Shown here piece after piece: positions 5,800-40,998 of a DNA stretch of 64,000 nucleotides. Positions within the stretch are counted from its first letter, which is position 1, and the number at the start of each line of letters is the position of its first letter. Source of the DNA: Marchantia polymorpha subsp. ruderalis (taxonomy: Eukaryota > Streptophyta > Marchantiopsida > Marchantiales > Marchantiaceae); contig AP031355.1 in assembly GCA_037833965.1 (NCBI GenBank), positions 14,347,501 to 14,411,500 on the forward strand, in the 5' to 3' direction. The position numbers and the translations under genes are program-made. The notes under the pieces are model-generated. The model was not told the origin of the DNA. It did no database searches and saw nothing but the letters and a program-made list of their open reading frames with translations.

Positions 5800-5832
5800 G
5801 ATAGCGTAGTGCTAGTTAGGATCTTTTGAGAG

Positions 5833-16216: not shown

Positions 16217-16252
16217 CGTAGTGCAGTGTAGTGCTAGGTAGGACTTAGAAGG

Positions 16253-19738: not shown

Positions 19739-19747
19739 CAATTAACG

Positions 19748-21603: not shown

Positions 21604-24600
21604 TGTAATAACCCACTAAAGGCTAAAACTGCAATATAGTGGTAGAAAGGTCGAACCCACAGGGACAGAGGAACACACAGGGTACAAAGTGTCACGTTTT
21701 AACAGACTATTGAGGAGTTTGAATTCTCAGGCAACTGTCACTCCCAGAAATACTGCAAGTGTCCACTCGGAGCGCACTCGGAGGTCGCACAGTGCAGCGT
21801 AACACACACACACACACACCTGAAACTACAGAAACACAACCCAGAGATCCGTTAGGACCTCTACTTCAAGATTTCAGGGGGAAAGTCTCTCTCAAGCACA
21901 CTCGGCAAAGCTGCGGGCAGTGACTTCCAACTCCGGCTTTTACAACGCTTCCACTAGCTTGCTGCTAGTGTAGGAAACCCGGTTTGGACTACCTACTTCG
22001 GATCGAAGTCACTCAGACGCGGTGAACAACACTCTCAACTCACAAAACGCGCAGAGAACACAGGTCCGCACTGAAGGACTCACTGAGAAACATTCCAGTA
22101 ACACAACAACAGTCTATTGAAGAGTTTGAATTCTCAGGCACTTGTCATTCCCAGAAATACTACAGGGGTTACCCTCAAGGCACCTGCTGCAGCGTAACCT
22201 GAATTTACAACCAAGGCTTACACGAAGTAGCAAAACTTCACTTTGGCATTCAGGGGAAAAATCCCAAGGAGTACAATCAGAAAGAAACACTCGAAGGTGT
22301 AGGGGCGAAACTGTTCAAGTATCTAACTAGTCACTGGCTCTGAGCATCGGCAGTCACCCGCAGGTGCAGATCCGAACTACTCAAGTCTCTAACCAATGTA
22401 CTAGCTCTGAACATTCGGCCGAAGGCCTTTAGCTACAAAATGCGGAACGCTAAGTTGTAACTCCTCGTGCGTGGTGACAGAACTCAAGGACACAAACACG
22501 CAAAGGAAATGGGTTCCTGATCTGCACTTCTGATGGGAAAGAACCCCAGGCAAAACGCCTGGAACTATTTTATACCTTCTAAGTCCTACCTAGCACTACA
22601 CTGCACTACGCTACACGCCTGCACGGAACCACGCTACACTACACTCCGCGGAACCTGTACTACGTCTCCTGCGCGGCCGACTGCCGCGCACTAACTCCCT
22701 ACCCTGCCAGTCTTCTGCTCGACTGCGCAGTCCCAACCGCTGCAACGCCGCGGACACCTCCCCTTCGAGGGCGGACATGGTATCCTGTGCCTTCGACAGA
22801 AAGGCTTCGAGCTTCTTTGCTACCTTCCGCCGACTCCTACTGTCGCCTGACAACAACCCGGCTGCGCGCAATTCAAACTCACGCAGTGTGAGTTTCTCCT
22901 GCGCCTTCACTTCCCAGTGGGCGTAGCCCTTGAGACAGTGGGCGACTCGCCTCGCCGTCTCCACCTTCGTGCGATCCGCCTCCTTCCTGCGATCCTCTTC
23001 AATCATCACTAATTGCGATTCGGCTTCAGCACGTTGCGCTCTCAATTCGCCACACTCTGACTGCAACCTGCGGATTAATTCTTCATCCGCCTGCCGTGCG
23101 AGCTGACATTGTTCCAACAACCGCGTCTGTCGCACGAGCTCCTCTGACAAAATCCGATTCTGGGCCTGCTCAGAGTTGAGTGCTTCCTTGACCTTCACCT
23201 GCTCCTTGGTGAGCTCGCCCAGTTTCTCATCCTTCATCTTCTCGGTGTGCTTGTAGAACTTCTGATTAAGCTTGTACTGACCCCACAAGCACGCATGCTT
23301 CTCCTTCAAGTCCCTCAACTCCTGGTCCACTCTAGCTAATAGCTTGCTGGTGTGGACTTTAGTGCGAGTCCGCCTGCGCACTAACTCGATGTAAGATCCC
23401 GGCTGGAGTGGGTCGGCGTATTTATCGACCTTGCGATCCAAGTACCGCAGCAACGGAATCACCTGCTTAGAGAGCGCCGCCGCCGGCGCTCCAACAATTT
23501 CCTCCTCCTCCTCCTCGGTGTCTTCTGCTCCTGACATTTCTTCCGTGGAGCCTCCGTCGTCATCATCCGAGTGGAGAATTTCAGTCGCCATTGATTGCGT
23601 CGGCGACTGCCCCGAGTGGGGCTGCACGTCGTCGACGTGTGCTGCCTGCGAAGGCACGGCTGCAGCCTCGCTGCTCGTCGCCAAAATGTCTAAGGCGGAA
23701 GGCGAATGTACCCGAGCGGCATCCCCGTCGCTCGCTGGTTGATTGCCTACCGCGTTCTCTCTGCCGCCGTCGTCCGTCGCAGAAGGCGATCGAGCGGAAG
23801 GTGGCTGCGCGGGGTTAGATTGCGCATCGCGCATCGAGATTTCATCCCGCGGACAGTCACTCCGCTCCTCTGTCTGTTGCTGCTCCCTTGATCGGCCCGT
23901 GGGGGCTGTGCCCGGCCCGTGCGCAGGCGCATTTGCCGGCGCCTTGTCCGCCGCAGGCGTAGCGCCGCGGACATCTATCGCCGAAGGCGACATGGCCGGG
24001 GGCCGCACGCCCGATGTTCCTTGGCCTATAGGCCCTACCGCCGAAGGCGCATCTATCGGCGGACTTCCCGCCGATGGTGCGGCCTCCGCACGCTCTCTGC
24101 TCGTATCTCCTCGGCTCGAAGGCCCTGGCGCCGAAGGCGCAAATTGCGGCGCGCGGTGCGCCGGAGGGTCTGGCCCCGAGGGCCGGTGTCTCGTAGGCGG
24201 TTCTTCCGCCGGCTCCTTCCCCTTCCTACGTTGGAACGGGGGTGATTCTTGCCTGTGCACAGGCGGCACGTGTGGAGGTGTCATGTGCACAGGCGGACTG
24301 CTCCTTCCCACGCGTAAGCGTAGATCCACGTCCACTTGTGTTCGCCGGTCCGCGGAGGCTCGTCCGTCCGCGGAGGTTCGCCTGTGCGCAAACGGAACAT
24401 CTGTCCGCATCGCACGTGGTAACTCCGGAGGCCCTTGGCCCGTAGGCGGCCTCTCTCCCGACGAGGTTGCAGCGTGGCCCGTTGCTCCTGCGGTCGTCCG
24501 CGCTTCCTCTCGCCTCTCTGGCGACGCACTTCCTATCTCCGTCGCAATCGTCGCCGTGTCTGCACTGTCAGCTGGCAACACCAGTCTGCGTGCCTTCTGC

Positions 24601-26964
24601 TTCGTCCGGCTGTATGGCTCGCACAGCGGCCGCGGTCGAATGGGAGCAGAGGGTTCTTGATGCTGCTCCTCTTCGGACTCTTCCCTCCATCGCCGCTTCC
24701 GCGGCACTCGCGCTGCAGGGGTGTGTCTCCCTTCGTCCCTCCGTCTTGATGGGGTAGAAGTCGGTGACTCCTCCGCATCAGTGTCGACCTCGTTCTCCCG
24801 CACATACTTCCCGGGATGGTCGATGGACAATGGCGGAAAATGTTCAAGCTCCGCCGCTGTCAAACAATTCCGCTGTCGATAAAAATTGATGAGGAAAGGA
24901 GAAAGATGGTTTAGAGTTCCCCCTTTCTCCTCAAACGCGTGCTGTCGCATCACCCTGTGCAGGATGCTCGCCCAGTGAATTGGAGTTCCCTCGATGACGC
25001 ACTCCACAAAAGAGACCTGCCACAATGTGATGTAGCAGGCGCGGTGCGGCTGCAGTAATTGCATCAGCGCCGCGGACAAAGTCCGGCGAAATCGATCCTT
25101 GTAATCACGGGTCCTGTACCCATTCTTGGTAGACCTCCCGGTCTTGAACAGCTCCACAAATTGCGCCTCTTCTTGCTTGGTCACCTTGATGCTCTCACTG
25201 TCGAAAAGGAGATGCCCTGGCATGCCAGCACATCTTCCCAACGCCTGCGCCCAATCTTGAACTGTCCACCGGTCAACATGCGGACGCAATCCGCGCGAGG
25301 GTGGTCCCTGTGGCTCTAGCCACTCGCGCACCATATTCGCGCAGATGTAATTCCATCCCCATAGCAAGAAATCGAGCTTTCTTGCTATTAAGCGCTCCTC
25401 GAAAGCGCGCAGCCCGTTCTGCGGCAGGCGAAGTGGCACCATCCGCAATCTGCTCGGTCTCGTCATTGCGTTCCTGGGGTTCGCTCGCCCGCTCATTCTA
25501 CTTCCGCACTGCCCGCGTTTCTTTCTCTCTCGGCAAACTCTAATCGCCCTCAATTCCAAATCACGCGCACTCACTTCTCCCTCAATCAACAAGAAATCTC
25601 CTGTGCGACGACGTCGAGAATGTTCCGCAGCCAGCAGATGGATGCGCGCAGCGCGCACAAGAGATTGGAATCGCGAATTCAAGAATGGGACGTTCTCCGC
25701 CGCCCGGTCGAAGGTCATGGTCGGCTCTTGGTCGTGAAGAACGTCTCACTTGATGGCCGCGCCGGCTGTACGCTGGAACGGTCTTCGCTCTCACGCGCGG
25801 CTTCACGCTCCGCCGTCGTCGATTAAACTCTCACGCTCGAATTGGCGGATTTGAACTCCGCGAGCGTGTCACCCTGCGGACATGGGGGCGTAGCGCCCAA
25901 GGCGAGTTTTCCGCCTTGCGCGGTACACTTGTTCGTACCGCCCCTCGGCCAATCCCCCTCTGCCTTGACGCGTGTGTCCGCATGTCGGACAAAAATTCAA
26001 CTCCTGCCTGTGCGCAGGCAGGAGCCTCGGCGGATTCTCCGCCGGCGCGGAACTTGAACATCCTCCTGTGCACAGGCGTCCGCCTGTGCGTAGGCGAATT
26101 CCGTCCGCGGCGCTGCGCTGGCGCGGAAGGCGTTGACCGTGGTCAGCCGTCTCCGTCCAGTCTGTCCGTTCCTTGTCTCTCCGTCGGCGCTTCCGCCGCC
26201 GCAACTCCGTCCGTCCAAGAGCGCATCCACCCGTGCCGTCCGCATGGTCCGTACCGATTGGATTACTCTGGCGGCTCCTCCGACGTACGCGGCGCCGCGC
26301 TGGCGCGGAAGGCGCCGTACACTTTCTACCTCACAAGGCGCATTTCTAGGGCCCAAGGCGGATTTCCCGCCGACGCCGAAGTGCCTGTGCACAGGCGAAC
26401 GCCTGTGCGTAGGCGGACTTCGCGCCTTCCCTAACCCTACTTCGCCTGTGCACAGGCGAACGCCTTCGTCCGCGCATAGGGCAAAACTTGATTCCCCCTT
26501 CCGCGTAGGCGGAATTCGCGCCGGTGGCGAACTCCTTCCGCCGTAGGCGACCGCCTCCGTTTCTTCCAATAGCGATAACTCCCTAAGTCCTCATCCGTTC
26601 CAAGCGTTCTTGGGCTCGTTAGAATCAGCGCGTCGAGCTCTTTCCAACGGGACCCTAACTTGGTCAAGGCGCCCGAGGGTTGACCTAATTACGGGGGTTT
26701 CCCTACAGCCGCGGACGCAACCTCTGAAGGCGGATTTTGCGCCTTGCGCCGTAGAGATCCTAACTGCAGAGCTCGCAGGGAGGGTGGTGCCTGTCCTTAC
26801 TGCGGCACCCCAAATCCCAGATTCTACAAGATCCCTCGAGAATCCCCGCGATCTTCCGGATTCACTCTGTTTTGATGTACCGAAGGCTATTTACAATGCT
26901 GCCAGGGTACAGTTTTCCAAAAATGTTTTAATTTCCTCAAAATTGCCAAAAGTGGGGTACCACA
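21604..26964 (-). repeat. 3' LTR of element C (full length, subfamily I)
   Basis: 5,361 bp, minus strand from TGTGGTACCCC (26,964) to GGTTATTACA (21,604). It contains the U3 frame at 22,611-25,718, TATA at about 22,568-22,574 and the hairpin CCAGGC-GTTTT-GCCTGG (22,546-22,562). R-U5 is the long form: two copies of the GAATTCAAACTC block (about 21,715-21,757 and 22,109-22,165) around a (CA)n-bearing segment. Confidence 0.9.
22611..25718 (-). CDS. U3-encoded LTR protein, 3' LTR of C (1,035 aa)
   Basis: Open from MTFDRAAENV. Residue M85 (MTRPSRLRM) aligns with the likely start in A and E, so the protein may be 951 aa. Residues 90-310 are the conserved domain (LLWGWNYICANMVREWL, RGLRPHVDRW, WAQALGRCAG, TRDYKDRFRR, GGTLNHLSPF, NCLT). 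At 335-385 there is a basic region with PRKRRW and PKQKARRL-like patches. About 390-750 is Pro/Ser/Arg-rich and encoded by palindrome-rich DNA; about 755-1,000 is coiled coil; the C-terminus is PRRRRSTGSAECS. It lies wholly in U3, ending about 37 bp before the TATA box. Function unknown. The frame looks whole. Confidence 0.78.
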   Translation of the reverse strand: MTFDRAAENVPFLNSRFQSLVRAARIHLLAAEHSRRRRTGDFLLIEGEVSARDLELRAIRVCRERKKRGQCGSRMSGRANPRNAMTRPSRLRMVPLRLPQNGLRAFEERLIARKLDFLLWGWNYICANMVREWLEPQGPPSRGLRPHVDRWTVQDWAQALGRCAGMPGHLLFDSESIKVTKQEEAQFVELFKTGRSTKNGYRTRDYKDRFRRTLSAALMQLLQPHRACYITLWQVSFVECVIEGTPIHWASILHRVMRQHAFEEKGGTLNHLSPFLINFYRQRNCLTAAELEHFPPLSIDHPGKYVRENEVDTDAEESPTSTPSRRRDEGRHTPAARVPRKRRWREESEEEQHQEPSAPIRPRPLCEPYSRTKQKARRLVLPADSADTATIATEIGSASPERREEARTTAGATGHAATSSGERPPTGQGPPELPRAMRTDVPFAHRRTSADGRASADRRTQVDVDLRLRVGRSSPPVHMTPPHVPPVHRQESPPFQRRKGKEPAEEPPTRHRPSGPDPPAHRAPQFAPSAPGPSSRGDTSRERAEAAPSAGSPPIDAPSAVGPIGQGTSGVRPPAMSPSAIDVRGATPAADKAPANAPAHGPGTAPTGRSREQQQTEERSDCPRDEISMRDAQSNPAQPPSARSPSATDDGGRENAVGNQPASDGDAARVHSPSALDILATSSEAAAVPSQAAHVDDVQPHSGQSPTQSMATEILHSDDDDGGSTEEMSGAEDTEEEEEEIVGAPAAALSKQVIPLLRYLDRKVDKYADPLQPGSYIELVRRRTRTKVHTSKLLARVDQELRDLKEKHACLWGQYKLNQKFYKHTEKMKDEKLGELTKEQVKVKEALNSEQAQNRILSEELVRQTRLLEQCQLARQADEELIRRLQSECGELRAQRAEAESQLVMIEEDRRKEADRTKVETARRVAHCLKGYAHWEVKAQEKLTLREFELRAAGLLSGDSRSRRKVAKKLEAFLSKAQDTMSALEGEVSAALQRLGLRSRAEDWQGRELVRGSRPRRRRSTGSAECSVAWFRAGV

Positions 26965-26978
26965 TGCCCCCCTCCTCA
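26965..26978 (-). promoter_or_regulatory. Polypurine tract of element C
   Basis: On the minus strand TGAGGAGGGGGGCA ends directly at the LTR start TGTGGTACC. It is the expected plus-strand primer site and confirms the 3' LTR boundary. Confidence 0.8.
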
Positions 26979-27001
26979 ATTGTGAGCGCCCACGCGAACA
27001 C

Positions 27002-28093
27002 TCACATATGGTATTTCTTCAACCGCCACCCGTTCACTCGGGTGCCTAACAAATCGCCGGCCAGGTCCGCAAGTTGGATGGATCCATTCGGGAAGACTTC
27101 GACAACCCTGTAAGGTCCCATCCATCTTAGGTGCAGTTTGCCTGGGAATCTGGCATGCCTGCTGTCGTAGAGCAATGCCAAATCACCCGCCTGCAGTAGT
27201 ACCGGTTTGATCTTTTTATCGTATCTCTCCTTTCGGCGGAGCTGGATTTTCCTGGTGCGATCTTCGGCGTCTCGTCTCCTCTCATCCAGCAGCGTGACCT
27301 CCTGTAACCTGTAGAGCTGACTCTCCTCTGCGCCCATCCTCTGCAAATCCAACGTTCGTTGGGTGGGTACTTCAAATTCGATCGGGAGGATCGGGTGTTG
27401 CCCATACACCAGAAAGTATGGTGTCTGTTTGGTCGTGATCTTCTCAGCTGTGCGGTACGCCCATAGAGCTGCTGCTAGCTTCGTATCCCAGTCATGAGCG
27501 TGATTCACCGTGACCTTGAGTAGTATTTTACACAGCAGACCATTGGACTTCTCCGTCAGTCCATTTGCCTTGGGATTGTATGGAGTAGTCTTCCGGTGCT
27601 TGATGTGGAAGTACCGTGTCAGATCTTCGATGATCTGATTCAGAAAATGCGTGCCCCGGTCGCTGACTAGCTCTAAGGGACATCCGTAGCGTGTGATGAT
27701 TGACTCAAACAAGAATGCTGCCACTGTGGCAGCATCATCCCTTCTGGTGGCCCTGGCCTCTACCATTTTGGTGGCGTAGTCCGTTGCTACCAGAATGTAG
27801 CGCCTTCGTGTACTTCTAGTCACTGGTTGTATCGGCCCTACAAAGTCAATACCCCACTTTTCGAAAGGTGCTAGAGGCATGATGGGAGTCAGGGGCCAGC
27901 GTGTTGTAGGCGTCGGTCTCCCCGTCCTCTGGCAACTGTCGCACTTGCGGATGTAATCGAGAACATCCTTAAACATGGTCGGCCACCAATATCCCGCATT
28001 TAGGATCTTTGTGACCGTGTTCCTGGTGGCATAGTGTCCACCCGCCTCCTCTTGGTACCTCTGATTCCTCCAGGCATCTGCATAAGCGCTCAT
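27002..28093 (-). CDS. Integrase of element C
   Basis: Zinc-binding part GGHYATRNTV ... CDSCQR, then the DDE core: WGIDFVGPIQ, VSDRGTHFLNQ, and the KTTPYNPKANGLTEKSNG stretch holding the final Glu. The C-terminal region ends WMGPYRVVEVFPNGSIQL, with no chromodomain. This supports a non-chromovirus Gypsy element. Fossil part. Confidence 0.85.
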   Translation of the reverse strand: MSAYADAWRNQRYQEEAGGHYATRNTVTKILNAGYWWPTMFKDVLDYIRKCDSCQRTGRPTPTTRWPLTPIMPLAPFEKWGIDFVGPIQPVTRSTRRRYILVATDYATKMVEARATRRDDAATVAAFLFESIITRYGCPLELVSDRGTHFLNQIIEDLTRYFHIKHRKTTPYNPKANGLTEKSNGLLCKILLKVTVNHAHDWDTKLAAALWAYRTAEKITTKQTPYFLVYGQHPILPIEFEVPTQRTLDLQRMGAEESQLYRLQEVTLLDERRRDAEDRTRKIQLRRKERYDKKIKPVLLQAGDLALLYDSRHARFPGKLHLRWMGPYRVVEVFPNGSIQLADLAGDLLGTRVNGWRLKKYHM

Positions 28094-28233
28094 CTGCCAT
28101 CTTCTTGAACAAAACCCCCCGCTGGAGTTGGTACGGACCTGCCTTATGAATAAAGACAGTTCGCTGTTCCAAATCCATGCCTTCAGGACACTGGAGGGTT
28201 AGCAGATATCGATACAGGTCGGCATAGCGGGAC

Positions 28234-28620: not shown

Positions 28621-28650
28621 TGCTGAAACTGCAGGAGGGGTAGGAACCGA

Positions 28651-29970
28651 CTAGACGGCGTAGGCTGTCTCTTCGCTAGCCTCTCCATAGTACTGAGGGT
28701 GCTCTCCATAGTACGGTTGTGCCCACTCTACTGCGTTGACTGGATATGACGGACGGGTGGTAAGGCACTCGGTGTTTGCATGTCCCACCGCCCCGCACGT
28801 AGTACACCATAAGTTCGCTCGCACTCTCCCGGGTGATTTTCGGCGATCATGCCCGCCTACCACTTGAACCTTGAGATCGGCGAAGTCCTTCACAAGGGTC
28901 TCCATCTTCGAAGCTATATCTCCCGGCGCTCTGTCCGTAGTCACTCGTCGGATGCCCTTTTTCTTTGCTGACCCATGCTTCTTCCTCTTCTTCTCCTCCT
29001 CCGACGATGAGGTTTCCTCTTCTTCGGATGAGGAACGGTTCTCGTCCGAAGACGATTCCTCCGATGACGGAGTTGTACCTCTACGTCGTCTTCGCCCTCC
29101 CTTCGGTTTTCGCTCCTTCGACTCCCGTCTCTCTCTCCCTCTTCGGTTAAGAGTGGAAGTTTCGAAGGCTTCTGCCGATGCAATCACATCCTCAATAGTG
29201 TCGCACTTGCTGCGTCGGCAAAAAGTCTCCATCTCCCGAGTTAAACCGGTCACGTACCAATCCACAGCTTGTTGTACCGAGAAAGGGGACCCTGGTCCTG
29301 TTTTCGGTATTCTGTCAAGGAGGTCCAGAAATCTCTCAGTGTAGTCACGCAGACTCTCCTTCTTCTCTCGCTGCAAATTACGTAACTTTGTCAAAACCCG
29401 GCTGTCGTAGCCGAGCTCGCGAAAGCGGCGAAGGAACTTCTCCTTCAGCTGGGCCCATGTTGTCAACCCAGTCGGATCGATGCTCTTGTGATTGTACCAA
29501 CTCCTCGCTTTCTTCCGCAGAAGGCTTGGAAAGATCCTTAGTCGGTCGTCGTCTGCGATCTCGCGATTGGCAATAGACACCGACTCGAACAACTTGATGT
29601 ATGAATCTGCATCGTCGTCATCCCCACTCCCTTTGTACTTCGGGTAGGAATGTTTAGTAATCGGCTGAGGTAGCCGCACATTGGCTTGTCCGTCCGCCAT
29701 CGGTGTGTCTGTCGACGGTTCTCGGGCGGTCGGTTCTACTTCACGAGGCGGGTCCGTGCAAGGAATATCTAGTAGAACTGTAAGCACCAAGTTTGGTTCC
29801 GAGTCGCCGGGGGTAGGTTCCCCAAGGATGTCGGCCGAACTAGGCTTAGGTACTCTTTTTGGTGTTTTCTTGTTTTGACGCCGTGTCTCTTCCACGGCCT
29901 TCTCTGAATCTCGTCGGAACTTGCGGACAGCTCTAGCACTCAGGTTGCTCCCGCTAGCCCCAGTCGACAT
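28651..29970 (-). CDS. gag of element C
   Basis: 439 codons, almost identical to the first part of the B gag (MSTGASGSNLSARAV start, gag domain, Ser/Glu-rich stretch, first knuckle WCTTCGAVGHANTEC). Together B and C show one family present in both orientations. Confidence 0.85.
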   Translation of the reverse strand: MSTGASGSNLSARAVRKFRRDSEKAVEETRRQNKKTPKRVPKPSSADILGEPTPGDSEPNLVLTVLLDIPCTDPPREVEPTAREPSTDTPMADGQANVRLPQPITKHSYPKYKGSGDDDDADSYIKLFESVSIANREIADDDRLRIFPSLLRKKARSWYNHKSIDPTGLTTWAQLKEKFLRRFRELGYDSRVLTKLRNLQREKKESLRDYTERFLDLLDRIPKTGPGSPFSVQQAVDWYVTGLTREMETFCRRSKCDTIEDVIASAEAFETSTLNRRGRERRESKERKPKGGRRRRRGTTPSSEESSSDENRSSSEEEETSSSEEEKKRKKHGSAKKKGIRRVTTDRAPGDIASKMETLVKDFADLKVQVVGGHDRRKSPGRVRANLWCTTCGAVGHANTECLTTRPSYPVNAVEWAQPYYGEHPQYYGEASEETAYAV

Positions 29971-30016
29971 TCACCGAGCATGGCTGCTCGTACAAACCCC
30001 GGTGTTGACGCAACTG

Positions 30017-30034
30017 TCCCCGGCAGCGGCGCCA
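30017..30034 (-). promoter_or_regulatory. Primer binding site, tRNA-Asp type (C)
   Basis: Same 18-nt site as in B, on the minus strand, 22 nt from the end of the 5' LTR at 30,057. Confidence 0.8.
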
Positions 30035-30056
30035 AAAAGAAGTTGTCGGCTTCTTA

Positions 30057-33000
30057 TGTAATAACCCACTAAAGGCTAAAACTGCAATATAGTGGTAGAA
30101 AGGTCGAACCCACAGGGACAGAGGAACACACAGGGTACAAAGTGTCACGTTTTAACAGACTATTGAGGAGTTTGAATTCTCAGGCAACTGTCACTCCCAG
30201 AAATACTGCAACTGTCCACTCGGAGCGCACTCGGAGGTCGCACAGTGCAGCGTAACACACACACACACACACACCTGAAACTACAGAAACACAACCCAGA
30301 GATCCGTTAGGACCTCTACTTCAAGATTTCAGGGGGAAAGTCTCTCTCAAGCACACTCGGCAAAGCTGCGGGCAGTGACTTCCAACTCCGGCTTTTACAA
30401 CGCTTCCACTAGCTTGCTGCTAGTGTAGGAAACCCGGTTTGGACTACCTACTTCGGATCAAAGTCACTCAAACGCGGTGAACAACACTCTCAACTCACAA
30501 AACGCGCAGAGAACACAGGTCCGCACTGAAGGACTCACTGAGAAACATTCCAGTAACACAACAACAGTCTATTGAAGAGTTTGAATTCTCAGGCACTTGT
30601 CATTCCCAGAAATACTACAGGGGTTACCCTCAAGGCACCTGCTGCAGCGTAACCTGAATTTACAACCAAGGCTTACACGAAGTAGCAAAACTTCACTTTG
30701 GCATTCAGGGGAAAAATCCCAAGGAGTACAATCAGAAAGAAACACTCGAAGGTGTAGGGGCGAAACTGTTCAAGTATCTAACTAGTCACTGGCTCTGAGC
30801 ATCGGCAGTCACCCGCAGGTGCAGATCCGAACTACTCAAGTCTCTAACCAATGTACTAGCTCTGAACATTCGGCCGAAGGCCTTTAGCTACAAAATGCGG
30901 AACGCTAAGTTGTAACTCCTCGTGCGTGGTGACAGAACTCAAGGACACAAACACGCAAAGGAAATGGGTTCCTGATCTGCACTTCTGATGGGAAAGAACC
31001 CCAGGCAAAACGCCTGGAACTATTTTATACCTTCTAAGTCCTACCTAGCACTACACTGCACTACGCTACACGCCTGCACGGAACCACGCTACACTACACT
31101 CCGCGGAACCTGTACTACGTCTCCTGCGCGGCCGATTGCCGCGCACTAACTCCCTACCCTGCCAGTCTTCCGCTCGACTGCGCAGTCCCAACCGCTGCAA
31201 CGCCGCGGACACCTCCCCTTCGAGGGCGGACATGGTATCCTGTGCCTTCGACAGAAAGGCTTCGAGCTTCTTTGCTACCTTCCGCCGACTCCTACTGTCG
31301 CCTGACAACAACCCGGCTGCGCGCAATTCAAACTCACGCAGTGTGAGTTTCTCCTGCGCCTTCACTTCCCAGTGGGCGTAGCCCTTGAGACAGTGGGCGA
31401 CTCGCCTCGCCGTCTCCACCTTCGTGCGATCCGCCTCCTTCCTGCGATCCTCTTCAATCATCACTAATTGCGATTCGGCTTCAGCACGTTGCGCTCTCAA
31501 TTCGCCACACTCTGACTGCAACCTGCGGATTAATTCTTCATCCGCCTGCCGTGCGAGCTGACATTGTTCCAACAACCGCGTCTGTCGCACGAGCTCCTCT
31601 GACAAAATCCGATTCTGGGCCTGCTCAGAGTTGAGTGCTTCCTTGACCTTCACCTGCTCCTTGGTGAGCTCGCCCAGTTTCTCATCCTTCATCTTCTCGG
31701 TGTGCTTGTAGAACTTCTGATTAAGCTTGTACTGACCCCACAAGCACGCATGCTTCTCCTTCAAGTCCCTCAACTCCTGGTCCACTCTAGCTAATAGCTT
31801 GCTGGTGTGGACTTTAGTGCGAGTCCGCCTGCGCACTAACTCGATGTAAGATCCCGGCTGGAGTGGGTCGGCGTATTTATCGACCTTGCGATCCAAGTAC
31901 CGCAGCAACGGAATCACCTGCTTAGAGAGCGCCGCCGCCGGCGCTCCAACAATTTCCTCCTCCTCCTCCTCGGTGTCTTCTGCTCCTGACATTTCTTCCG
32001 TGGAGCCTCCGTCGTCATCATCCGAGTGGAGAATTTCAGTCGCCATTGATTGCGTCGGCGACTGCCCCGAGTGGGGCTGCACGTCGTCGACGTGTGCTGC
32101 CTGCGAAGGCACGGCTGCAGCCTCGCTGCTCGTCGCCAAAATGTCTAAGGCGGAAGGCGAATGTACCCGAGCGGCATCCCCGTCGCTCGCTGGTTGATTG
32201 CCTACCGCGTTCTCTCTGCCGCCGTCGTCCGTCGCAGAAGGCGATCGAGCGGAAGGTGGCTGCGCGGGGTTAGATTGCGCATCGCGCATCGAGATTTCAT
32301 CCCGCGGACAGTCACTCCGCTCCTCTGTCTGTTGCTGCTCCCTTGATCGGCCCGTGGGGGCTGTGCCCGGCCCGTGCGCAGGCGCATTTGCCGGCGCCTT
32401 GTCCGCCGCAGGCGTAGCGCCGCGGACATCTATCGCCGAAGGCGACATGGCCGGGGGCCGCACGCCCGATGTTCCTTGGCCTATAGGCCCTACCGCCGAA
32501 GGCGCATCTATCGGCGGACTTCCCGCCGATGGTGCGGCCTCCGCACGCTCTCTGCTCGTATCTCCTCGGCTCGAAGGCCCTGGCGCCGAAGGCGCAAATT
32601 GCGGCGCGCGGTGCGCCGGAGGGTCTGGCCCCGAGGGCCGGTGTCTCGTAGGCGGTTCTTCCGCCGGCTCCTTCCCCTTCCTACGTTGGAACGGGGGTGA
32701 TTCTTGCCTGTGCACAGGCGGCACGTGTGGAGGTGTCATGTGCACAGGCGGACTGCTCCTTCCCACGCGTAAGCGTAGATCCACGTCCACTTGTGTTCGC
32801 CGGTCCGCGGAGGCTCGTCCGTCCGCGGAGGTTCGCCTGTGCGCAAACGGAACATCTGTCCGCATCGCACGTGGTAACTCCGGAGGCCCTTGGCCCGTAG
32901 GCGGCCTCTCTCCCGACGAGGTTGCAGCGTGGCCCGTTGCTCTTGCGGTCGTCCGCGCTTCCTCTCGCCTCTCTGGCGACGCACTTCCTATCTCCGTCGC

Positions 33001-35217
33001 AATCGTCGCCGTGTCTGCACTGTCAGCTGGCAACACCAGTCTGCGTGCCTTCTGCTTCGGCCGGCTGTATGGCTCGCACAGCGGCCGCGGTCGAATGGGA
33101 GCAGAGGGTTCTTGATGCTGCTCCTCTTCGGACTCTTCCCTCCATCGCCGCTTCCGCGGCACTCGCGCTGCAGGGGTGTGTCTCCCTTCGTCCCTCCGTC
33201 TTGATGGGGTAGAAGTCGGTGACTCCTCCGCATCAGTGTCGACCTCGTTCTCCCGCACATACTTTCCGGGATGGTCGATGGACAATGGCGGAAAATGTTC
33301 AAGCTCCGCCGCTGTCAAACAATTCCGCTGTCGATAAAAATTGATGGGGAAAGGAGAAAGATGGTTTAGAGTTCCCCCTTTCTCCTCAAACGCGTGCTGT
33401 CGCATCACCCTGTGCAGGATGCTCGCCCAGTGAATTGGAGTTCCCTCGATGACGCACTCCACAAAAGAGACCTGCCACAATGTGATGTAGCAGGCGCGGT
33501 GCGGCTGCAGTAATTGCATTAGCGCCGCGGACAAAGTCCGGCGAAATCGATCCTTGTAATCACGGGTCCTGTACCCATTCTTGGTAGACCTCCCGGTCTT
33601 GAACAGCTCCACAAATTGCGCCTCTTCTTGCTTGGTCACCTTGATGCTCTCACTGTCGAAAAGGAGATGCCCTGGCATGCCAGCACATCTTCCCAACGCC
33701 TGCGCCCAATCTTGAACTGTCCACCGGTCAACATGCGGACGCAATCCGCGCGAGGGTGGTCCCTGTGGCTCTAGCCACTCGCGCACCATATTCGCGCAGA
33801 TGTAATTCCATCCCCATAGCAAGAAATCGAGCTTTCTTGCTATTAAGCGCTCCTCGAAAGCGCGCAGCCCGTTCTGCGGCAGGCGAAGTGGCACCATCCG
33901 CAATCTGCTCGGTCTCGTCATTGCGTTCCTGGGGTTCGCTCGCCCGCTCATTCTACTTCCGCACTGCCCGCGTTTCTTTCTCTCTCGGCAAACTCTAATC
34001 GCCCTCAATTCCAAATCACGCGCACTCACTTCTCCCTCAATCAACAAGAAATCTCCTGTGCGACGACGTCGAGAATGTTCCGCAGCCAGCAGATGGATGC
34101 GCGCAGCGCGCACAAGAGATTGGAATCGCGAATTCAAGAATGGGACGTTCTCCGCCGCCCGGTCGAAGGTCATGGTCGGCTCTTGGTCGTGAAGAACGTC
34201 TCACTTGATGGCCGCGCCGGCTGTACGCTGGAACGGTCTTCGCTCTCACGCGCGGCTTCACGCTCCGCCGTCGTCGATTAAACTCTCACGCTCGAATTGG
34301 CGGATTTGAACTCCGCGAGCGTGTCACCCTGCGGACATGGGGGCGTAGCGCCCAAGGCGAGTTTTCCGCCTTGCGCGGTACACTTGTTCGTACCGCCCCT
34401 CGGCCAATCCCCCTCTGCCTTGACGCGTGTGTCCGCATGTCGGACAAAAATTCAACTCCTGCCTGTGCGCAGGCAGGAGCCTCGGCGGATTCTCCGCCGG
34501 CGCGGAACTTGAACATCCTCCTGTGCACAGGCGTCCGCCTGTGCGTAGGCGAATTCCGTCCGCGGCGCTGCGCTGGCGCGGAAGGCGTTGACCGTGGTCA
34601 GCCGTCTCCGTCCAGTCTGTCCGTTCCTTGTCTCTCCGTCGGCGCTTCCGCCGCCGCAACTCCGTCCGTCCAAGAGCGCATCCACCCGTGCCGTCCGCAT
34701 GGTCCGTACCGATTGGATTACTCTGGCGGCTCCTCCGACGTACGCGGCGCTGCGCTGGCGCGGAAGGCGCCGTACACTTTCTACCTCACAAGGCGCATTT
34801 CTAGGGCCCAAGGCGGATTTCCCGCCGACGCCGAAGTGCCTGTGCACAGGCGAACGCCTGTGCGTAGGCGGACTTCGCGCCTTCCCTAACCCTACTTCGC
34901 CTGTGCACAGGCGAACGCCTTCGTCCGCGCATAGGGCAAAACTTGATTCCCCCTTCCGCGTAGGCGGAATTCGCGCCGGTGGCGAACTCCTTCCGCCGTA
35001 GACGACCGCCTCCGTTTCTTCCAATAGCGATAACTCCCTAAGTCCTCATCCGTTCCAAGCGTTCTTGGGCTCGTTAGAATCAGCGCGTCGAGCTCTTTCC
35101 AACGGGACCCTAACTTGGTCAAGGCGCCCGAGGGTTGACCTAATTACGGGGGTTTCCCTACAGCCGCGGACGCAACCTCCGAAGGCGGATTTTGCGCCTT
35201 GCGCCGTAGAGATCCTA
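30057..35217 (-). repeat. 5' LTR of element C, lacking its outermost U3 end
   Basis: Matches the 3' LTR almost base for base, except for about the first 200 bp of U3, which are absent. It ends in the LTR terminus GGTTATTACA at 30,057. The right end near 35,217 is replaced by a small rearranged piece. Confidence 0.85.
31066..34173 (-). CDS. U3-encoded LTR protein, 5' LTR of C (1,035 aa)
   Basis: Same protein as in the 3' LTR of C, with about four residue differences (for example PFPINFY against PFLINFY). The frame looks whole. The near identity reflects copying of one LTR from the other at reverse transcription, so this pair says nothing about selection. Confidence 0.78.
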   Translation of the reverse strand: MTFDRAAENVPFLNSRFQSLVRAARIHLLAAEHSRRRRTGDFLLIEGEVSARDLELRAIRVCRERKKRGQCGSRMSGRANPRNAMTRPSRLRMVPLRLPQNGLRAFEERLIARKLDFLLWGWNYICANMVREWLEPQGPPSRGLRPHVDRWTVQDWAQALGRCAGMPGHLLFDSESIKVTKQEEAQFVELFKTGRSTKNGYRTRDYKDRFRRTLSAALMQLLQPHRACYITLWQVSFVECVIEGTPIHWASILHRVMRQHAFEEKGGTLNHLSPFPINFYRQRNCLTAAELEHFPPLSIDHPGKYVRENEVDTDAEESPTSTPSRRRDEGRHTPAARVPRKRRWREESEEEQHQEPSAPIRPRPLCEPYSRPKQKARRLVLPADSADTATIATEIGSASPERREEARTTARATGHAATSSGERPPTGQGPPELPRAMRTDVPFAHRRTSADGRASADRRTQVDVDLRLRVGRSSPPVHMTPPHVPPVHRQESPPFQRRKGKEPAEEPPTRHRPSGPDPPAHRAPQFAPSAPGPSSRGDTSRERAEAAPSAGSPPIDAPSAVGPIGQGTSGVRPPAMSPSAIDVRGATPAADKAPANAPAHGPGTAPTGRSREQQQTEERSDCPRDEISMRDAQSNPAQPPSARSPSATDDGGRENAVGNQPASDGDAARVHSPSALDILATSSEAAAVPSQAAHVDDVQPHSGQSPTQSMATEILHSDDDDGGSTEEMSGAEDTEEEEEEIVGAPAAALSKQVIPLLRYLDRKVDKYADPLQPGSYIELVRRRTRTKVHTSKLLARVDQELRDLKEKHACLWGQYKLNQKFYKHTEKMKDEKLGELTKEQVKVKEALNSEQAQNRILSEELVRQTRLLEQCQLARQADEELIRRLQSECGELRAQRAEAESQLVMIEEDRRKEADRTKVETARRVAHCLKGYAHWEVKAQEKLTLREFELRAAGLLSGDSRSRRKVAKKLEAFLSKAQDTMSALEGEVSAALQRLGLRSRAEDWQGRELVRGNRPRRRRSTGSAECSVAWFRAGV

Positions 35218-35345
35218 GAAGATCCTAAAGAAACACTCGAAGGTGTAGGGGCGAAACTGTTCAAGTATCTAACTAGTCACTGGCTCTGAGCATCGGCAGT
35301 CACCCGCAGGTGCAGATCCGAACTACTCAAGTCTCTACTCAAGAA
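35218..35345 (-). repeat. Rearranged fragment of LTR R-U5
   Basis: About 35,228-35,337 repeats the R-U5 sequence found at about 30,737-30,845 (AAACACTCGAAGGTGTAGGG onward), followed by a short local repeat of ACTACTCAAGTCTCT. It joins the truncated C LTR to element G and looks like the scar of a deletion or repair event. Confidence 0.65.
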
Positions 35346-35653
35346 CTACTCAAGTCTCTCCACTTCGTTGGAGGAGTTAGCTGATTGAGTAGTGGAGGGA
35401 GTGGAGAGAACTGACATGGAGTAGCATCCAGCATCTTCACCTCAGACATCTACGGGAACTATCATCCTGGAGCGACGAAGACCCTTTGGCGGAAGAGACT
35501 CAGTAGGTCAAAATTAATGTGGCAGATGTGCTGAGTGAACATGTTCTTCCCTTGCTCCTTTATTTAGACGAAAAGTTGGAGAAGTATGCCGGACAATCCG
35601 TCGTGGGATCTTACGTGGAGTTAGTGCATAGCAGGACGCGGGCGAAGGTGGCC
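35346..35653 (+). mobile_element. Element G, part 2 (diverged U3 protein segment)
   Basis: From about 35,520 it encodes a segment like the start of the coiled-coil tail (VLSEHVLPLLLYLDEKLEKY; compare LCEQIVPLLRYLDRK in A). It is strongly diverged and broken. Interrupted at 35,654 by solo LTR D. Confidence 0.65.
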
Positions 35654-38600
35654 TGTAATAACCCACTAAAGGCTAAAACTGCAATATAGTGGTAGAAAGG
35701 TCGAACCCACAGGGACAGAGGAACACACAGGGTACAAAGTGTCACGTTTTAACAGACTATTGAGGAGTTTGAATTCTCAGGCAACTGTCACTCCCAGAAA
35801 TACTGCAAGTGTCCACTCGGAGCGCACTCGGAGGTCGCACAGTGCAGCGTAACACACACACACACCTGAAACTACAGAAACACAACCCAGAGATCCGTTA
35901 GGACCTCTACTCAAGATTTCAGGGGGGGAAAGTCTCTCGGGAGTACACTCAGCGAAGCTGCGGGTAGTGACTCCCAACTCCGGCTTTTACAACACTTCCG
36001 CTAGCTTGCTGCTAGCGTAGGAAACCCGGTTTGGACTGCCTACTTCGGATCGAAGTCACTCAGACGCGGTGAACAACACTCTCAACTCACAAAACGCGCA
36101 GAGAACACAGGTCCGCACTGAAGGACTCACTGAGAAACATTCCAGTAACACAATAACAGTCTATTGAAGAGTTTGAATTCTCAGGCACTTGTCATTGCCA
36201 GAAATACTACAGGGGTTACCCTCAAGGCACCTGCTGCAGCGTAACCTGAATTTACAACCAAGGCTTACACGAAGTAGCAAAACTTCACTTTGGCATTCAG
36301 GGGAAAAATCCCAAGGGAGTACAATCAGGAAGGAACACTCGAAGGTGTAGGGGCGAAACTATTCAAGTATCTAACTAGTCACTGGCTCTGAGCATCGGCA
36401 GTCACCCGCAGGTGCAGATCCGAACTACTCAAGTCTCTAACCAATGTACTAGCTCTGAACATTCAGCCGAAGGCCTTCAGCTACAAAATGCGGAACGCTA
36501 AGTTGTAACTCCTCGTGCGTGGTGACAGAACTCAAGGACACAAACACGCAAAGGAAATGGGTTCCTGATCTGCACTTCTGATGGGAAAGAACCCCAGGCA
36601 AAACGCCTGGAACTATTTTATACCTTCTAAGTCCTACCTAACACTACACTGCACTATGCTACACGCCTGCACGGGACCACGCTACACTACACTCCGCGGA
36701 ACCTGTGCTACGTCTCCTGCGCGGCGGACTGCCGCGCACTAACTCCCTACCCTGCCAGTCTTCCGCTCGACTGCGCAGTCCCAATCGCTGCAACGCCGCG
36801 GACACCTCCACTTCGAGGGCGGACATGGTATCCTGCGCCTTCGACAGAAAAGCATCGAGCTTCTTTGCTACCTTCCGCCGACTCCTACTGTCGCCTGACA
36901 ACAACCCAACTGCGCGAAGTTCAAACTCACGCAGTGTGAGTTTCTCCTGCGCCGCCACTTTCCAGTGGGCGTAGCCCTTGAGACAGTGGGCGACACGTCT
37001 TGCCGTCTCCACCTTTGTGCGATCTGCCTCCTTCCTGCGATCTTCTTCAACTATCACTAATTGCGATTCGGCCTCAGCACGTTGCGCTCTCAATTCGCCA
37101 CACTCTGACTGTAGCCTGCGGATTACCTCCTCATCCGCCTGCCGTGCGAGCTGACACTGTTCCAACAACCGCGTCTGTCGCACGAGCTCCTCTGACAAAA
37201 TCCGATTCTGGGCCTGCTCAGAAATTAGTGCTTCTGTGACCTTCACCTGCTCCTTGGTGAGCTCTTCCAGTTTCCCATCCCTCACCTTCTCGGAGTACTT
37301 GTAGAATTTCTGATTAAGTTTATACTGACCCCACAAGCATTCATGCTTCTCCTTCAATTCCCTCAACTCCTGGTCCACTCTAGCTAATAGCTTGCTGGTG
37401 TGGACTTTAGTGCGAGTCCGCCTTCGCACTAACTCGATGTAAGATCCCGGCTGAAGTGGGTCGGCGTATTTATCGACTTTGCGATCCAAGTACCTCAGCA
37501 ACGGAATCACCTGCTCAGAGAGCGCCGCCGCCGGCGCTCCAACAATTTCCTCCTCCTCCTCCTCGGTGTCCTCTGCTCCTGACATTTCTTCGGTGGAGCC
37601 TCCGTCGTCATCATCCGAGTGGAGAATTTCAGTCGCCATTGATTGCGTCGGCGACTGACCCGAGTGGGGCTGCACGTCGTCGACGTGTGCTGCCTGCGAA
37701 GGCACGGCTGTAGCCGCGCTGCTCTTCGCCAAAATGTCTAAGGCGGTAGGCGAATGTGCCCGTGCGGCATCCCCGCCGCTCGCTTGTTGGTCGTCTACCG
37801 TGTCCTCTCTGCCGCCGACGCCCGCCGCCGAAGGCGATCGAGCGGAGGGTGGCTGCGCGGGGTTTGATTGCGCATCGCGCATCGAAATTTCATCCCGCGG
37901 ACAGTCACTCCGCTCCTCCGTCTGTTGCTGCTCCCTTGATCGGTCCGCGGGGGCTGTGCTTGGCCTGTGCGCAGGCGCAAATGCCGGCTCCTTGTCCGCC
38001 GCAGGCGTAGCGCCGCGGACGTCCATCGCCAAAGGCGACATGGCCGGGGGCTGCTCGCCCGATGTCCCTTGGCCCTGAGGCCCTACCGCCGAAGGCGCAT
38101 CTACCGGCGGATTACCCGCCGATAGTGTGCCTTCCGCACACTCCCTGCTCGTATCTCCTCGGCTCGAAGGCCCTGGCGCCGAAGGCGCAAATTGCGGCGC
38201 GTGGTGCGCCGGAGGGTCTGGCCCCGAGGGCCGGTGTCTCGTAGGCGGTTCTTCCGCCGGCTCCTTCCCCTTCCTACGTTGGAACGGGGGTGATTCCTGC
38301 CTGTGCACAGGCGGCACGTGTGGAGGTGACCTGTGCACAGGCGAGCGCCTGTGCAGAGGCGGACTGCTCCTTCCCACGCGTAAGCGTAGATCTACGTCCA
38401 CTTGTGATCGTCTGTCCGCGGAGGCTCGTCCGTCCGCGGAGTCTCGTCTGTGCGCAAACGGAACACCTGTCCGCAACGCACGTGGTAACTCCGGAGGCCC
38501 TTGGCCCGTAGGCGGCCTCACGCCCGTCGAGGCTGCAGCGTGGTCCGTTGCTCCTGCGGTCGTCCGCGCTTCCTCATGCTTCTCTGGCGACGCACTTCCT

Positions 38601-40998
38601 TTCTCCGTCGCAATCGTCGCCGTGTCCGCACTGTTGGCTGGTAACACCAGTCTGCGTGCCTTCTGCTTCGGCCGGCTGTATGACTCGTACAACGGCCGCG
38701 GTCGAATGGGAGCAGAGGGTTCTTGATGCTGCTCCTCTTCGGACTCTTCTCTCCATCGCCGCTTCCGCGGCACTCGTGCTGCAGGAGTGTTTCTCCCTTC
38801 GTCCCTCCGCCTTGATGGGGTAGAAGTCGGTGACTCCTCTGCATCAGTGTCGACCTCATTCTCCCGCACATACTTCCCGGGATGGTCGACGGACAACGGC
38901 GGAAAATGCTCAAGCTCCGCCGCTGTCAAACAATTCCGCTGTCGATAAAAATTGATGAGGAAAGGAGAGAGATGGTTTAGAGTCCCCCCCTTCTCCTCAA
39001 AAGCGTGCTGTCGCATCACCCTGTGCAGGATGCTCGCCCAGTGAATTGGAGTTCCCTCGATGACGCACTCCACAAAAGAGACCTGCCACAATGTGATGTA
39101 GCAGGCGCGGTGTGGCTGCAGTAATTGCATCAGCGCCGCGGACAAAGTCCGGCGAAATCGATCCTTGTAATCACGGGTCCTGTACCCATTCTTGGTAGAC
39201 CTCCCCGTCTTGAACAGCTCCACAAATTGCGCCTCTTCCTGCTTGGTCACCTTGATGCTCTCACTGTCGAAGAGGAGATGCCCTGGCATGCCGGCACATC
39301 TTCCCAATGCCTGCGCCCAATCTTGGACTGTCCACCGATCAACATGCGGACGCAATCCGCGCGAGGGTGGTCCCTGTGGCTCTAGCCACTCGCGCACCAT
39401 ATTCGCACAGATGTAGTTCCATCCCCATAGCAAGAAATCGAGCTTTCTTGCTATTAAGCGCTCCTCGAAAGCGCGCAGCCCGTTCTGTGGTAGGCGAAGT
39501 GGCACCATCCGCAATCTGCCCGGTCTCGTCATTGCGTTCCTGGAGTTCGCTCGCCCGCTCATTCTACTTCCGCACCGCTCGAGCTCCTTTCTCTCTCGGC
39601 AAACTCTAATCGCCCTCAATTCCAAATCCCGCGCACTCACTTCTCCCTCAATCACCAAGAAATCCCCCGTGCGGCGACGTCGAGAATGTTTAGCAGCCAG
39701 CAGATGGACGCGCGCAGCGCGCACAAGAGATTGGAATCGCGAATTCAAGAATGGGACGCTCTCCGCCGCCCGGTCGAAGGTCATGGTCGGCTCTTGCTCG
39801 TGGAGGACGTCTCACTTGATGGCCGCGCCGGCTCTACGCTGGAACGGTCTCCGCTCTCACGCGCGGCTTCACGCTCCGCCGTCGCCGATTAAACTCTCAC
39901 GCTCGAATTGGCGGATTTGAACTCCGCGAGCGTATTACCCCGCGGACATGGGAGCGCAGCGCCGAAGGCGAGTTTTCCGCCTTGCGCGGTACACTTGTTC
40001 GTACCGCCCCTCGGCCAATCCCCTTCTGCCTCGACGCGTGTGTCCGCATGTCGGACAAAAGTTCAACTCCTGCCTGTGCGCAGGCAGACTCCTCGGCGGA
40101 TTCTCCGCCGGCGCGGAACTTCATCCTCCTGTGCACAGGCGACCTCCTGTGCGCAGGCGAATTCCGTCCGCGGCGTCGCGCTGGCGCGGAAGGCGTTGAC
40201 CGTGGTCAGCCGTCTCCGTCCAGACTGTCCGTTCCTTGTCTCTTCGTCGGCGCTTCCGCCGCCGCAACTCCGTCCGTCCAAGAGCGCATCCACCCGTCCC
40301 GTCCGCATGGTCCGTACGGATTTGATTACTCTGGCGGCTCCTTGCTCGTCCGCGGCGCCGCGCTGGCGCGGAAGGCGCCGTACACTTTCTACCTCACAAG
40401 GCGCATTTCTAGGGCCCAAGGCGGATTTTCCGCCGACGCCGAAGCGCCTGTGCACAGGCGAACGCTTGTGCGTAGGCGGACTTCGCGCCTCCCCAAAACC
40501 CTACTTCGCCTGTGCACAGGCGAACTTCCTTCGTCCGCGCATAGGACAAAACTTGATTCCCCCTTCCGCGTAGGCGGAATTCCCGTCGGTGGCGAACTCC
40601 TTCCGCCGAAGGCGAACGTCTACGTATCTTCCAATAGTGATAACTCCCTAAGTCCTCATCCGTTCCAAGCGTTCTTGGACTCGTTGGAATCAGTGCGTCG
40701 AGCTCTTTCCAACGAGACCCTAACTCGGTCAAGGCGCCCGAGGGTTGACCTAATTATGAAGGATTTCCCTACCGCCGCGGACGCAACCTCCGAAGGCGGG
40801 TTTTGCGCCTTGCGTCGCAGGGATCCTAACTGCAGAGCTCGCAGGGAGGGTGGTGCCCATCCTTACTGCTGCACCCCAAATCCTAGATTCTACAAGATCC
40901 CTTGAGGATCCCCGAAGGCTATTTACAATGCTGCCAGGGTACAGTTTTTTCCAAAAATGTTTTAATTTCCTCAAAATTACCAAAAGTGGGGTACCACA
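35654..40998 (-). mobile_element. Solo LTR D (subfamily I) with intact U3 frame
   Basis: 5,345 bp, minus strand, TGTGGTACCCC at 40,998 to GGTTATTACA at 35,654. It has an exact 5-bp duplication TGGCC on both sides (35,649-35,653 and 40,999-41,003). TATA lies at about 36,616-36,622 and the hairpin at 36,594-36,610. It has a short CA repeat and long-form R-U5. It inserted into element G. The U3 frame looks whole. Confidence 0.92.
36659..39784 (-). CDS. U3-encoded LTR protein of solo LTR D (1,041 aa)
   Basis: Same architecture as in C and close in sequence, from an independent insertion. It starts MTFDRAAESV, with the likely conserved start at MTRPGRLRM; the domain from 90 to 310 is nearly unchanged. 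Differences cluster in the low-complexity middle. The tail is coiled coil and the end is RRRRSTGSAECS. Conservation of the N-terminal domain and coiled coil against a drifting middle is what constraint would look like. Confidence 0.78.
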   Translation of the reverse strand: MTFDRAAESVPFLNSRFQSLVRAARVHLLAAKHSRRRRTGDFLVIEGEVSARDLELRAIRVCRERKELERCGSRMSGRANSRNAMTRPGRLRMVPLRLPQNGLRAFEERLIARKLDFLLWGWNYICANMVREWLEPQGPPSRGLRPHVDRWTVQDWAQALGRCAGMPGHLLFDSESIKVTKQEEAQFVELFKTGRSTKNGYRTRDYKDRFRRTLSAALMQLLQPHRACYITLWQVSFVECVIEGTPIHWASILHRVMRQHAFEEKGGTLNHLSPFLINFYRQRNCLTAAELEHFPPLSVDHPGKYVRENEVDTDAEESPTSTPSRRRDEGRNTPAARVPRKRRWREESEEEQHQEPSAPIRPRPLYESYSRPKQKARRLVLPANSADTATIATEKGSASPEKHEEARTTAGATDHAAASTGVRPPTGQGPPELPRALRTGVPFAHRRDSADGRASADRRSQVDVDLRLRVGRSSPPLHRRSPVHRSPPHVPPVHRQESPPFQRRKGKEPAEEPPTRHRPSGPDPPAHHAPQFAPSAPGPSSRGDTSRECAEGTLSAGNPPVDAPSAVGPQGQGTSGEQPPAMSPLAMDVRGATPAADKEPAFAPAHRPSTAPADRSREQQQTEERSDCPRDEISMRDAQSNPAQPPSARSPSAAGVGGREDTVDDQQASGGDAARAHSPTALDILAKSSAATAVPSQAAHVDDVQPHSGQSPTQSMATEILHSDDDDGGSTEEMSGAEDTEEEEEEIVGAPAAALSEQVIPLLRYLDRKVDKYADPLQPGSYIELVRRRTRTKVHTSKLLARVDQELRELKEKHECLWGQYKLNQKFYKYSEKVRDGKLEELTKEQVKVTEALISEQAQNRILSEELVRQTRLLEQCQLARQADEEVIRRLQSECGELRAQRAEAESQLVIVEEDRRKEADRTKVETARRVAHCLKGYAHWKVAAQEKLTLREFELRAVGLLSGDSRSRRKVAKKLDAFLSKAQDTMSALEVEVSAALQRLGLRSRAEDWQGRELVRGSPPRRRRSTGSAECSVAWSRAGV

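What the first reader, a model, noticed from the sequence alone, without database searches (positions are those of the whole stretch)
21604..40998. A Gypsy family whose giant LTRs carry a long protein-coding frame in U3
LTR ends are fixed by target duplications, primer site and polypurine tract. Between the U3 start and the TATA box of the long LTRs lies one frame of about 850-1,040 codons. It is open in A, in both LTRs of C and in D, and recognisable in B, E, I and G. It ends 34-45 bp before the TATA box, so it lies wholly in U3. The full element RNA would carry it at its 3' end after pol, as sag lies in the LTR of mouse mammary tumour virus. Extra frames in plant LTR elements are known (for example in Ogre/Tat relatives), but usually in the internal region; a protein this large inside U3 is unusual.
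Basis: partly seen in the sequence, partly recalled or inferred. Interest (0 to 1): 0.88.

Follow-up and report, generated by a model that had tools for sequence, protein, structure and literature searches.

The report
Liverwort retrotransposon gene inside its LTR
In the liverwort Marchantia, a very abundant jumping element carries a large, conserved protein gene inside its terminal repeats, a place that in most such elements holds only control signals, so even leftover single repeats can keep the gene.

Summary
The window comes from a Marchantia polymorpha genome. LTR ends are fixed by target duplications, an LTR/primer-site junction and a polypurine tract just before the LTR. One sense frame of 907-1,050 codons (stop to stop) lies wholly in U3 of the 4.9-5.4 kb LTRs and ends 33-36 bp before TATAAA. 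It is not chance (300 shuffles per LTR reach at most 342 codons), and substitutions fit protein coding in that frame: dN/dS 0.24-0.35 overall, 0.03-0.13 in the N-terminal domain (window pairs). Among best-scoring genome rows, 43 of 45 of one subfamily and 48 of 50 of another have no stop; of 18 5' LTRs picked by position, 5 frames are fully open. The family has 5,694 exact LTR tails and 1,219 LTR/primer junctions. In the element examined, gag-pro and pol fill the internal region, so this is its only extra gene. The protein has a conserved N-terminal domain, a disordered-looking middle and a long proline-free tail. It has no predicted membrane segment, no Pfam family and no named relative found outside M. 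polymorpha. I read it as a nuclear regulatory or accessory protein of the element; function and expression are inferred. Placement resembles MMTV sag; membership does not.

The parts
1893..6758 (+). solo LTR A (type A, 4,866 bp, duplication ACTAT)
   Evidence: head, tail and flanks
3079..5799 (+). U3 frame of A, 906 codons; conserved domain starts at Met 3244
12933..13969 (+). start of J, an old third-type LTR; degraded U3 frame from about 13485, cut by B
13970..16817 (+). 5' LTR of B (type C) with an internal deletion that removes the first part of the U3 frame
16838..16856 (+). primer-binding site of B
   Evidence: complementary tRNA-like string at 4 genomic places (not confirmed as tRNA genes)
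16904..19738 (+). gag-pro of B, ending in a UAG CAA UUA context, followed in frame by pol
19739..21603 (+). pol of B (RT, RNase H, start of integrase), interrupted by C
21604..26964 (-). 3' LTR of C (5,361 bp); polypurine tract just before its head
22611..25718 (-). U3 frame in the 3' LTR of C, 1,035 codons; conserved Met at 25466
27002..28093 (-). integrase part of C, ending just before the polypurine tract
28651..29970 (-). gag part of C
30018..30036 (-). primer-binding site of C
30057..35217 (-). 5' LTR of C, lacking about its first 200 bp
31066..34173 (-). U3 frame in the 5' LTR of C, 1,035 codons, 7 nucleotide changes from the 3' copy
35654..40998 (-). solo LTR D (5,345 bp, duplication GGCCA)
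36659..39784 (-). U3 frame of D, 1,041 codons
41673..48615 (+). solo LTR F (type A, duplication GTGGC), interrupted by G
42405..44347 (-). solo LTR G, internally deleted (duplication CCGAC), inserted in the U3 leader of F
45054..47204 (+). U3 frame of F, open for 716 codons
49349..51829 (-). solo LTR H (duplication AGTGT), inserted in the U5 part of E; no U3 frame of 250 codons
52537..55497 (-). U3 frame of E, one register throughout but 2 internal stops

Best explanation
A very abundant Ty3/Gypsy family of Marchantia polymorpha carries a third gene placed wholly in U3 of its LTRs. SHOWN BY SEQUENCE: the gene sits between the LTR start and the TATA box, so it exists in both LTRs of an element and stays in solo LTRs (A, D), and it evolves as a protein under purifying selection; gag-pro and pol fill the internal region. 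INFERRED: the protein acts in the nucleus in trans on the element's own DNA or RNA, as a regulator of transcription or silencing or a helper of RNA export, using the conserved N-terminal domain to bind a target and the long helical tail to oligomerise. INFERRED: it is made either from a separate transcript that starts in the 1.2 kb U3 leader and ends in the same LTR, or from a spliced element RNA, because the frame lies over 1 kb behind pol in the full RNA. CONSEQUENCE (inferred): collapse to a solo LTR, which deletes gag and pol, keeps this gene.
For: LTR anatomy. Coding in one frame: sense-frame dN/dS 0.26-0.32 in five comparisons, the other two sense frames 0.92-1.41, antisense frames 0.80-1.54 except the one sharing the wobble position, 0.35-0.49. 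N domain dN/dS 0.029 (C/D), 0.110 (C/E), 0.125 (D/E), 0.095 (A/F). Five open copies of the position-chosen sample plus C and D: N domain 34 silent against 3 replacement changes, binomial P 8e-16; middle 77:99, P 6e-5; C-terminal part 51:39, P 6e-8. Two broken copies compared with each other show dN/dS 0.70 overall, 0.42 in the N domain (L041/L043), which fits relaxation after death. Gaps inside the frame that are multiples of three: 1 of 1 (C/D), 3 of 3 (C/E), 3 of 3 (D/E), 5 of 7 (A/F), 18 of 34 (C/A); outside 1 of 10, 2 of 4, 1 of 3, 4 of 26, 5 of 40. Open genome copies. No membrane segment: highest 19-residue hydropathy 1.14 (C) and 1.22 (A); proline-free tails of 241 and 233 residues; basic clusters beside the N domain. 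Pol stop to next LTR only 37 bp.
Against: No RNA or protein evidence was available. No Pfam family or solved-structure match points to a function. Structure predictions failed (mean pLDDT 40.9 and 46.7). The middle third is only weakly constrained (0.33-0.56). The rows and the 30 loci are best protein matches, which favours conserved copies, and the lists are capped. 13 of 18 position-chosen 5' LTRs lack a fully open frame. The third, older subfamily has no copy that I could confirm open.
Confidence: 0.55

Rival explanations
1. The protein counters host silencing: it binds a short motif repeated in the family's LTRs and keeps them unmethylated, as VANC proteins do for VANDAL transposons (recalled).
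For: A 24-base motif in the U3 leader is shared by types A, C and J and occurs at 4,783 places, control 0, near the number of LTR tails, 5,694. Gene and motif travel together in solo LTRs A and D.
Against: No binding or methylation data. The motif could be an enhancer or RNA signal read by host factors.
Confidence: 0.2
2. It is a structural or envelope-like protein made from a spliced RNA, in the way proposed for barley Bagy2.
For: Sense orientation, 3' of pol, the place of env; splicing reported for Bagy2 (PMC7264820, text part 1 of 3).
Against: No membrane segment: highest 19-residue hydropathy 1.22; long proline-rich middle and helical-looking tail.
Confidence: 0.1
3. The host has taken over the U3 protein, and selection acts through a plant function of some solo LTRs.
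For: Solo LTRs A and D keep open frames; gene models exist in M. polymorpha annotations.
Against: Selection is seen across many similar copies and across two divergent subfamilies, which points to element-level selection; one pair of broken copies looks relaxed.
Confidence: 0.05
4. The frame is a by-product of G+C-rich sequence and not a gene, or the LTR ends are wrong.
For: The region from 22 to 40 kb is 52-62% G+C in 2 kb steps.
Against: Shuffles reach 342 codons at most; single-frame selection; duplications and a complete internal region between LTRs.
Confidence: 0.01

Closest known systems
Mouse mammary tumour virus sag (and HIV-1 nef in part)
   Same: A protein frame lying wholly in U3 (sag) and hence present in both LTRs; MMTV also has an extra promoter that can express sag alone (PMC12789967, passages).
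   Different: Retrovirus of mice; sag is a type II membrane protein. This frame is about three times longer (sag length recalled), has no predicted membrane segment and sits in a plant Ty3/Gypsy element. Sequence was not compared with sag.
Additional ORFs of plant Ty3/Gypsy elements (Athila ORF-1, Ogre plant mobile domain, Retand TRP28, Retrosat2 ORF0)
   Same: Extra gene of unknown or supposed regulatory role in a long plant Gypsy element (PMC6317226 section 13; PMC11963269 abstract and discussion; PMC3485330 passages; PMC7264820 part 1 of 3).
   Different: Those lie in the internal region, TRP28 antisense after pol and ORF0 before gag; here the gene is sense and inside the LTR. None of plant mobile domain, Transposase_28 or Athila ORF-1 was hit by 22 family members at E up to 1.
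CERV of the C. elegans Gypsy element Cer1
   Same: Accessory protein of a Gypsy element with no known homology outside Caenorhabditis; it is needed for export of the element RNA (PMC10309623 passages).
   Different: [quoted passage not shown] no sequence relation was tested.

Membership tests
Ty3/Gypsy LTR retrotransposon | gag, protease, RT, RNase H, integrase in Gypsy order; PBS, PPT, 5-bp duplication | tested here: met
Chromovirus | chromodomain in pol | tested here: not met
   none among Pfam hits of the pol frame at E up to 0.001
Tat (Ogre, Retand) | a second RNase H domain | tested here: not met
   Pfam hits of pol at E up to 0.001 show only the RT-linked RNase H; criterion from PMC6317226 section 13
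Retand | long pol-3'LTR region with antisense TRP28 frame | tested here: not met
   37 bp between pol stop and LTR in L039; no PF04195 hit of the U3 protein
Athila | RT phylogeny | not tested
   no RT tree built; pol relatives listed include liverwort and angiosperm proteins
MMTV sag-like U3 gene (works like) | whole frame inside U3 | tested here: met
MMTV sag (member) | type II membrane protein | tested here: not met
   no membrane segment by hydropathy; sequence relation to sag not tested
Plant mobile domain / Transposase_28 / Athila ORF-1 / Transposase_32 | Pfam profile match | tested here: not met
   22 members, E up to 1, no such hit; hhalign with one Transposase_32 carrier gave 0.4% probability; more remote kinship stays open

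The most novel reading that the evidence does not exclude
Each LTR is a self-contained gene plus target: the U3 protein recognises the conserved leader motif CTNRTTCYAACGAGYCCAAGARCG in the family's LTRs and keeps them open or controls their transcription. Thousands of solo LTRs, usually taken for inert remains, would then form a dispersed trans-acting gene family, and solo-LTR formation would not disarm the element.
Probability: 0.18. Interest if true: 0.88.

Novelty: new variant of a known kind. Interest (0 to 1): 0.72.

Why it matters
The texts I read place extra genes of plant LTR elements in the internal region; a conserved gene of about 850-1,040 codons inside U3 changes what an LTR, and a solo LTR, can do. 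It offers a test of whether solo LTRs act in trans, in a haploid model plant with good genetics (recalled). It also warns annotators: such frames are listed as hypothetical plant genes, and an LTR mask would hide them.

Tried and rejected
Chance open frame: rejected by shuffles and six-frame comparison. Wrong LTR ends: rejected. Gene carried in the internal region: rejected, pol stops 37 bp before the LTR. Descent from the element's own gag: hhalign probability 0.15%. Known Pfam domain: none convincing; coiled-coil type hits such as CENP-K to single members are taken as composition matches. Solved-structure relatives: none at E up to 10. AlphaFold2 models of the N domain had mean pLDDT 40.9 and 46.7, so no fold search was made. 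No Rfam hit in the window at gathering scores. Third subfamily: the search reported a 902-codon open frame for rows at C6:13709682-13712387, but reading that strand of the DNA gave open runs over 150 codons of only 296 and 180 (which stopped with a script error after printing these), so I do not call it open. First tRNA patterns were one base too long and found nothing; the corrected one found 4 places, not confirmed as tRNA genes. The generic initiator-Met primer pattern is not this family's. Paper searches for coding LTRs: 0 papers; 0 papers; judged from titles and starts of abstracts, none listed a plant element with a gene in U3; the library lacks most subscription papers.

Dropped rows: the 30 loci were cut to 25 distinct frames (two of them are the window's own C copies); only the 5 open copies of 18 plus C and D were used; two loci (L047, L051) were first read from the wrong junction and redone.

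Full report
SOURCE. The window is C6:14347501-14411500 of a 241.5 Mb genome in 9 contigs. All named relatives of the U3 protein are Marchantia polymorpha subsp. ruderalis proteins, so the host is taken to be this liverwort. The size is close to the chrU-bearing v7.1 assembly (241,484,302 bp in 9 sequences; PMC13078153 passages).

ANATOMY. The cluster is a nest of LTRs of one family. LTRs start TGTGGTA and end GGGTTATTACA; five solo LTRs (A, D, F, G, H) carry matching 5-bp flanks. In C the LTR end is followed by a primer-binding site, and the 3' LTR is preceded by a polypurine tract. The two C frames differ at 7 nucleotides, so the insertion looks young. Elsewhere in the genome L039 shows the internal region of a type-A element: LTR end 1187, PBS 1210, gag-pro 1271-4108, pol 4109-6949, PPT 6974-6984, next LTR 6987. 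There is no room for another internal gene. Many U3 frames of type A lie in pairs about 10.66 kb apart, as expected for two LTRs of one element.

THE FRAME. It runs 907 (A), 1044 (C) and 1050 (D) codons from stop to stop, against at most 342 in 300 shuffles each, ends 33-36 bp before TATAAA and about 960-1,010 bp before the LTR end. Across subfamilies the N-terminal domain begins at one aligned Met.

SELECTION. In five comparisons the true frame has dN/dS 0.26-0.32 and the other sense frames 0.92-1.41; the only low antisense frame (0.35-0.49) is the one whose wobble position coincides. Antisense frames of 250 codons or more over the U3 frames are 305 codons in each C copy and 446 in B, none in A or D. 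In window pairs constraint is strongest in the N-terminal 225 residues or so (0.03-0.13), weak in the middle (0.33-0.56), intermediate in the tail (0.20-0.29). To avoid picking conserved copies, I took every fifth of the first 90 listed LTR/primer junctions (18 loci on C1-C3, of 756 exact junctions). Five frames were fully open, two ran full length with 3 and 1 stops, eleven were truncated, shifted or interrupted. Among the five plus C and D the N domain has 34 silent and 3 replacement changes where 71.5% replacements are expected. Compared with the two broken copies the N domain gives 0.13-0.21; the two broken copies differ from each other with dN/dS 0.70 overall and 0.42 in the N domain, which fits loss of constraint in dead copies but is one pair. 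Type A and type C are about 42% identical in the U3 protein, 63% in gag-pro, 91% in the first part of pol and 84% in the integrase end, with silent sites saturated, so the gene is old though it changes faster than pol.

COPY NUMBER. 1,219 exact LTR/primer junctions and 5,694 exact LTR tails imply several thousand solo, 3' or broken LTRs. Of the best-scoring genome rows 43 of 45 (type C; the two C4 rows are halves of one place) and 48 of 50 (type A) have no internal stop. These are capped lists of best matches, not a random sample. A third subfamily (P0025, J) gave 108 rows, of which 98 carry stops by my count of the listing; it looks old.

PROTEIN. The N domain has about 225 residues and comes out helical in two low-confidence models; then a P/S/T/A/E/R-rich middle with basic clusters next to the domain and an acidic patch; then a proline-free tail of 233-241 residues. 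No membrane segment by hydropathy. No Pfam or solved-structure relative. Apart from two unnamed entries, no relative outside M. polymorpha appeared among 7,996 and 7,993 scored candidates, whereas pol finds close relatives in the liverwort Riccia sorocarpa in the same collection. As the U3 protein evolves much faster than pol and the search needs shared five-residue words, this does not show that Riccia lacks it.

MECHANISM. Shown: place, openness, selection. Inferred: expression and role. The full element RNA would carry the frame last, over 1 kb behind the pol stop, so a separate U3-leader promoter or splicing is likelier than scanning. No promoter or splice site was demonstrated. Nuclear action is inferred from basic clusters and lack of a membrane segment. 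A motif in the U3 leader conserved in A, F, C, D and J and found at 4,783 places is a candidate target. Regulation, silencing escape and RNA export cannot be told apart from sequence.

COMPARISON. The nearest arrangement is MMTV sag (PMC12789967 passages). Plant Gypsy elements often have extra genes, but the texts read describe them in the internal region (PMC7264820 part 1 of 3; PMC6317226 section 13). The element is not a chromovirus or Tat by the features tested; its exact lineage was not placed. LTRs up to about 5 kb are known in non-chromoviruses, so LTR length alone is not new.

Noticed in passing
window 19736-19738; L039:4106-4108: gag-pro and pol share one frame and are separated by a single UAG followed by CAA UUA (B) or CAA CUA (type A), the tobacco mosaic virus type of leaky stop (context rule recalled), conserved between divergent subfamilies.
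   Followed up: partly
G000:C6:28267005-28370513 and others: Head-to-tail arrays of LTR-internal units: 9 rows on a grid of 11,156 bp on C6, 5 rows at 10,662 bp at C6:10.77 Mb, others near 11.1-11.2 kb on C7, C2 and C3.
   Followed up: no
window 2324-2347 (A), 26605-26628 (C), 13108-13131 (J): U3-leader motif CTNRTTCYAACGAGYCCAAGARCG, in type A part of a palindrome GCTCGTTCTAACGAGC, 4,783 genome places, control 0.
   Followed up: partly
window 12933-41600: J, an old third-type LTR, appears cut by B (itself cut by C) and by D; U3-protein-like pieces lie at 13503, 35477 and 41265 on the + strand.
   Followed up: partly
window 58208-63955 (-): One 1,915-codon frame with gag, RT, RNase H and integrase domains: another Gypsy element without an internal stop.
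   Followed up: partly
G000:C1 about 2.2-3.3 Mb: Junction spacings recur along the 5.6 Mb contig, perhaps the triplication reported on the U chromosome (PMC13078153 passages).
   Followed up: no
window 62483-62608: A perfect tandem duplication of 63 bp inside that other element's frame.
   Followed up: no
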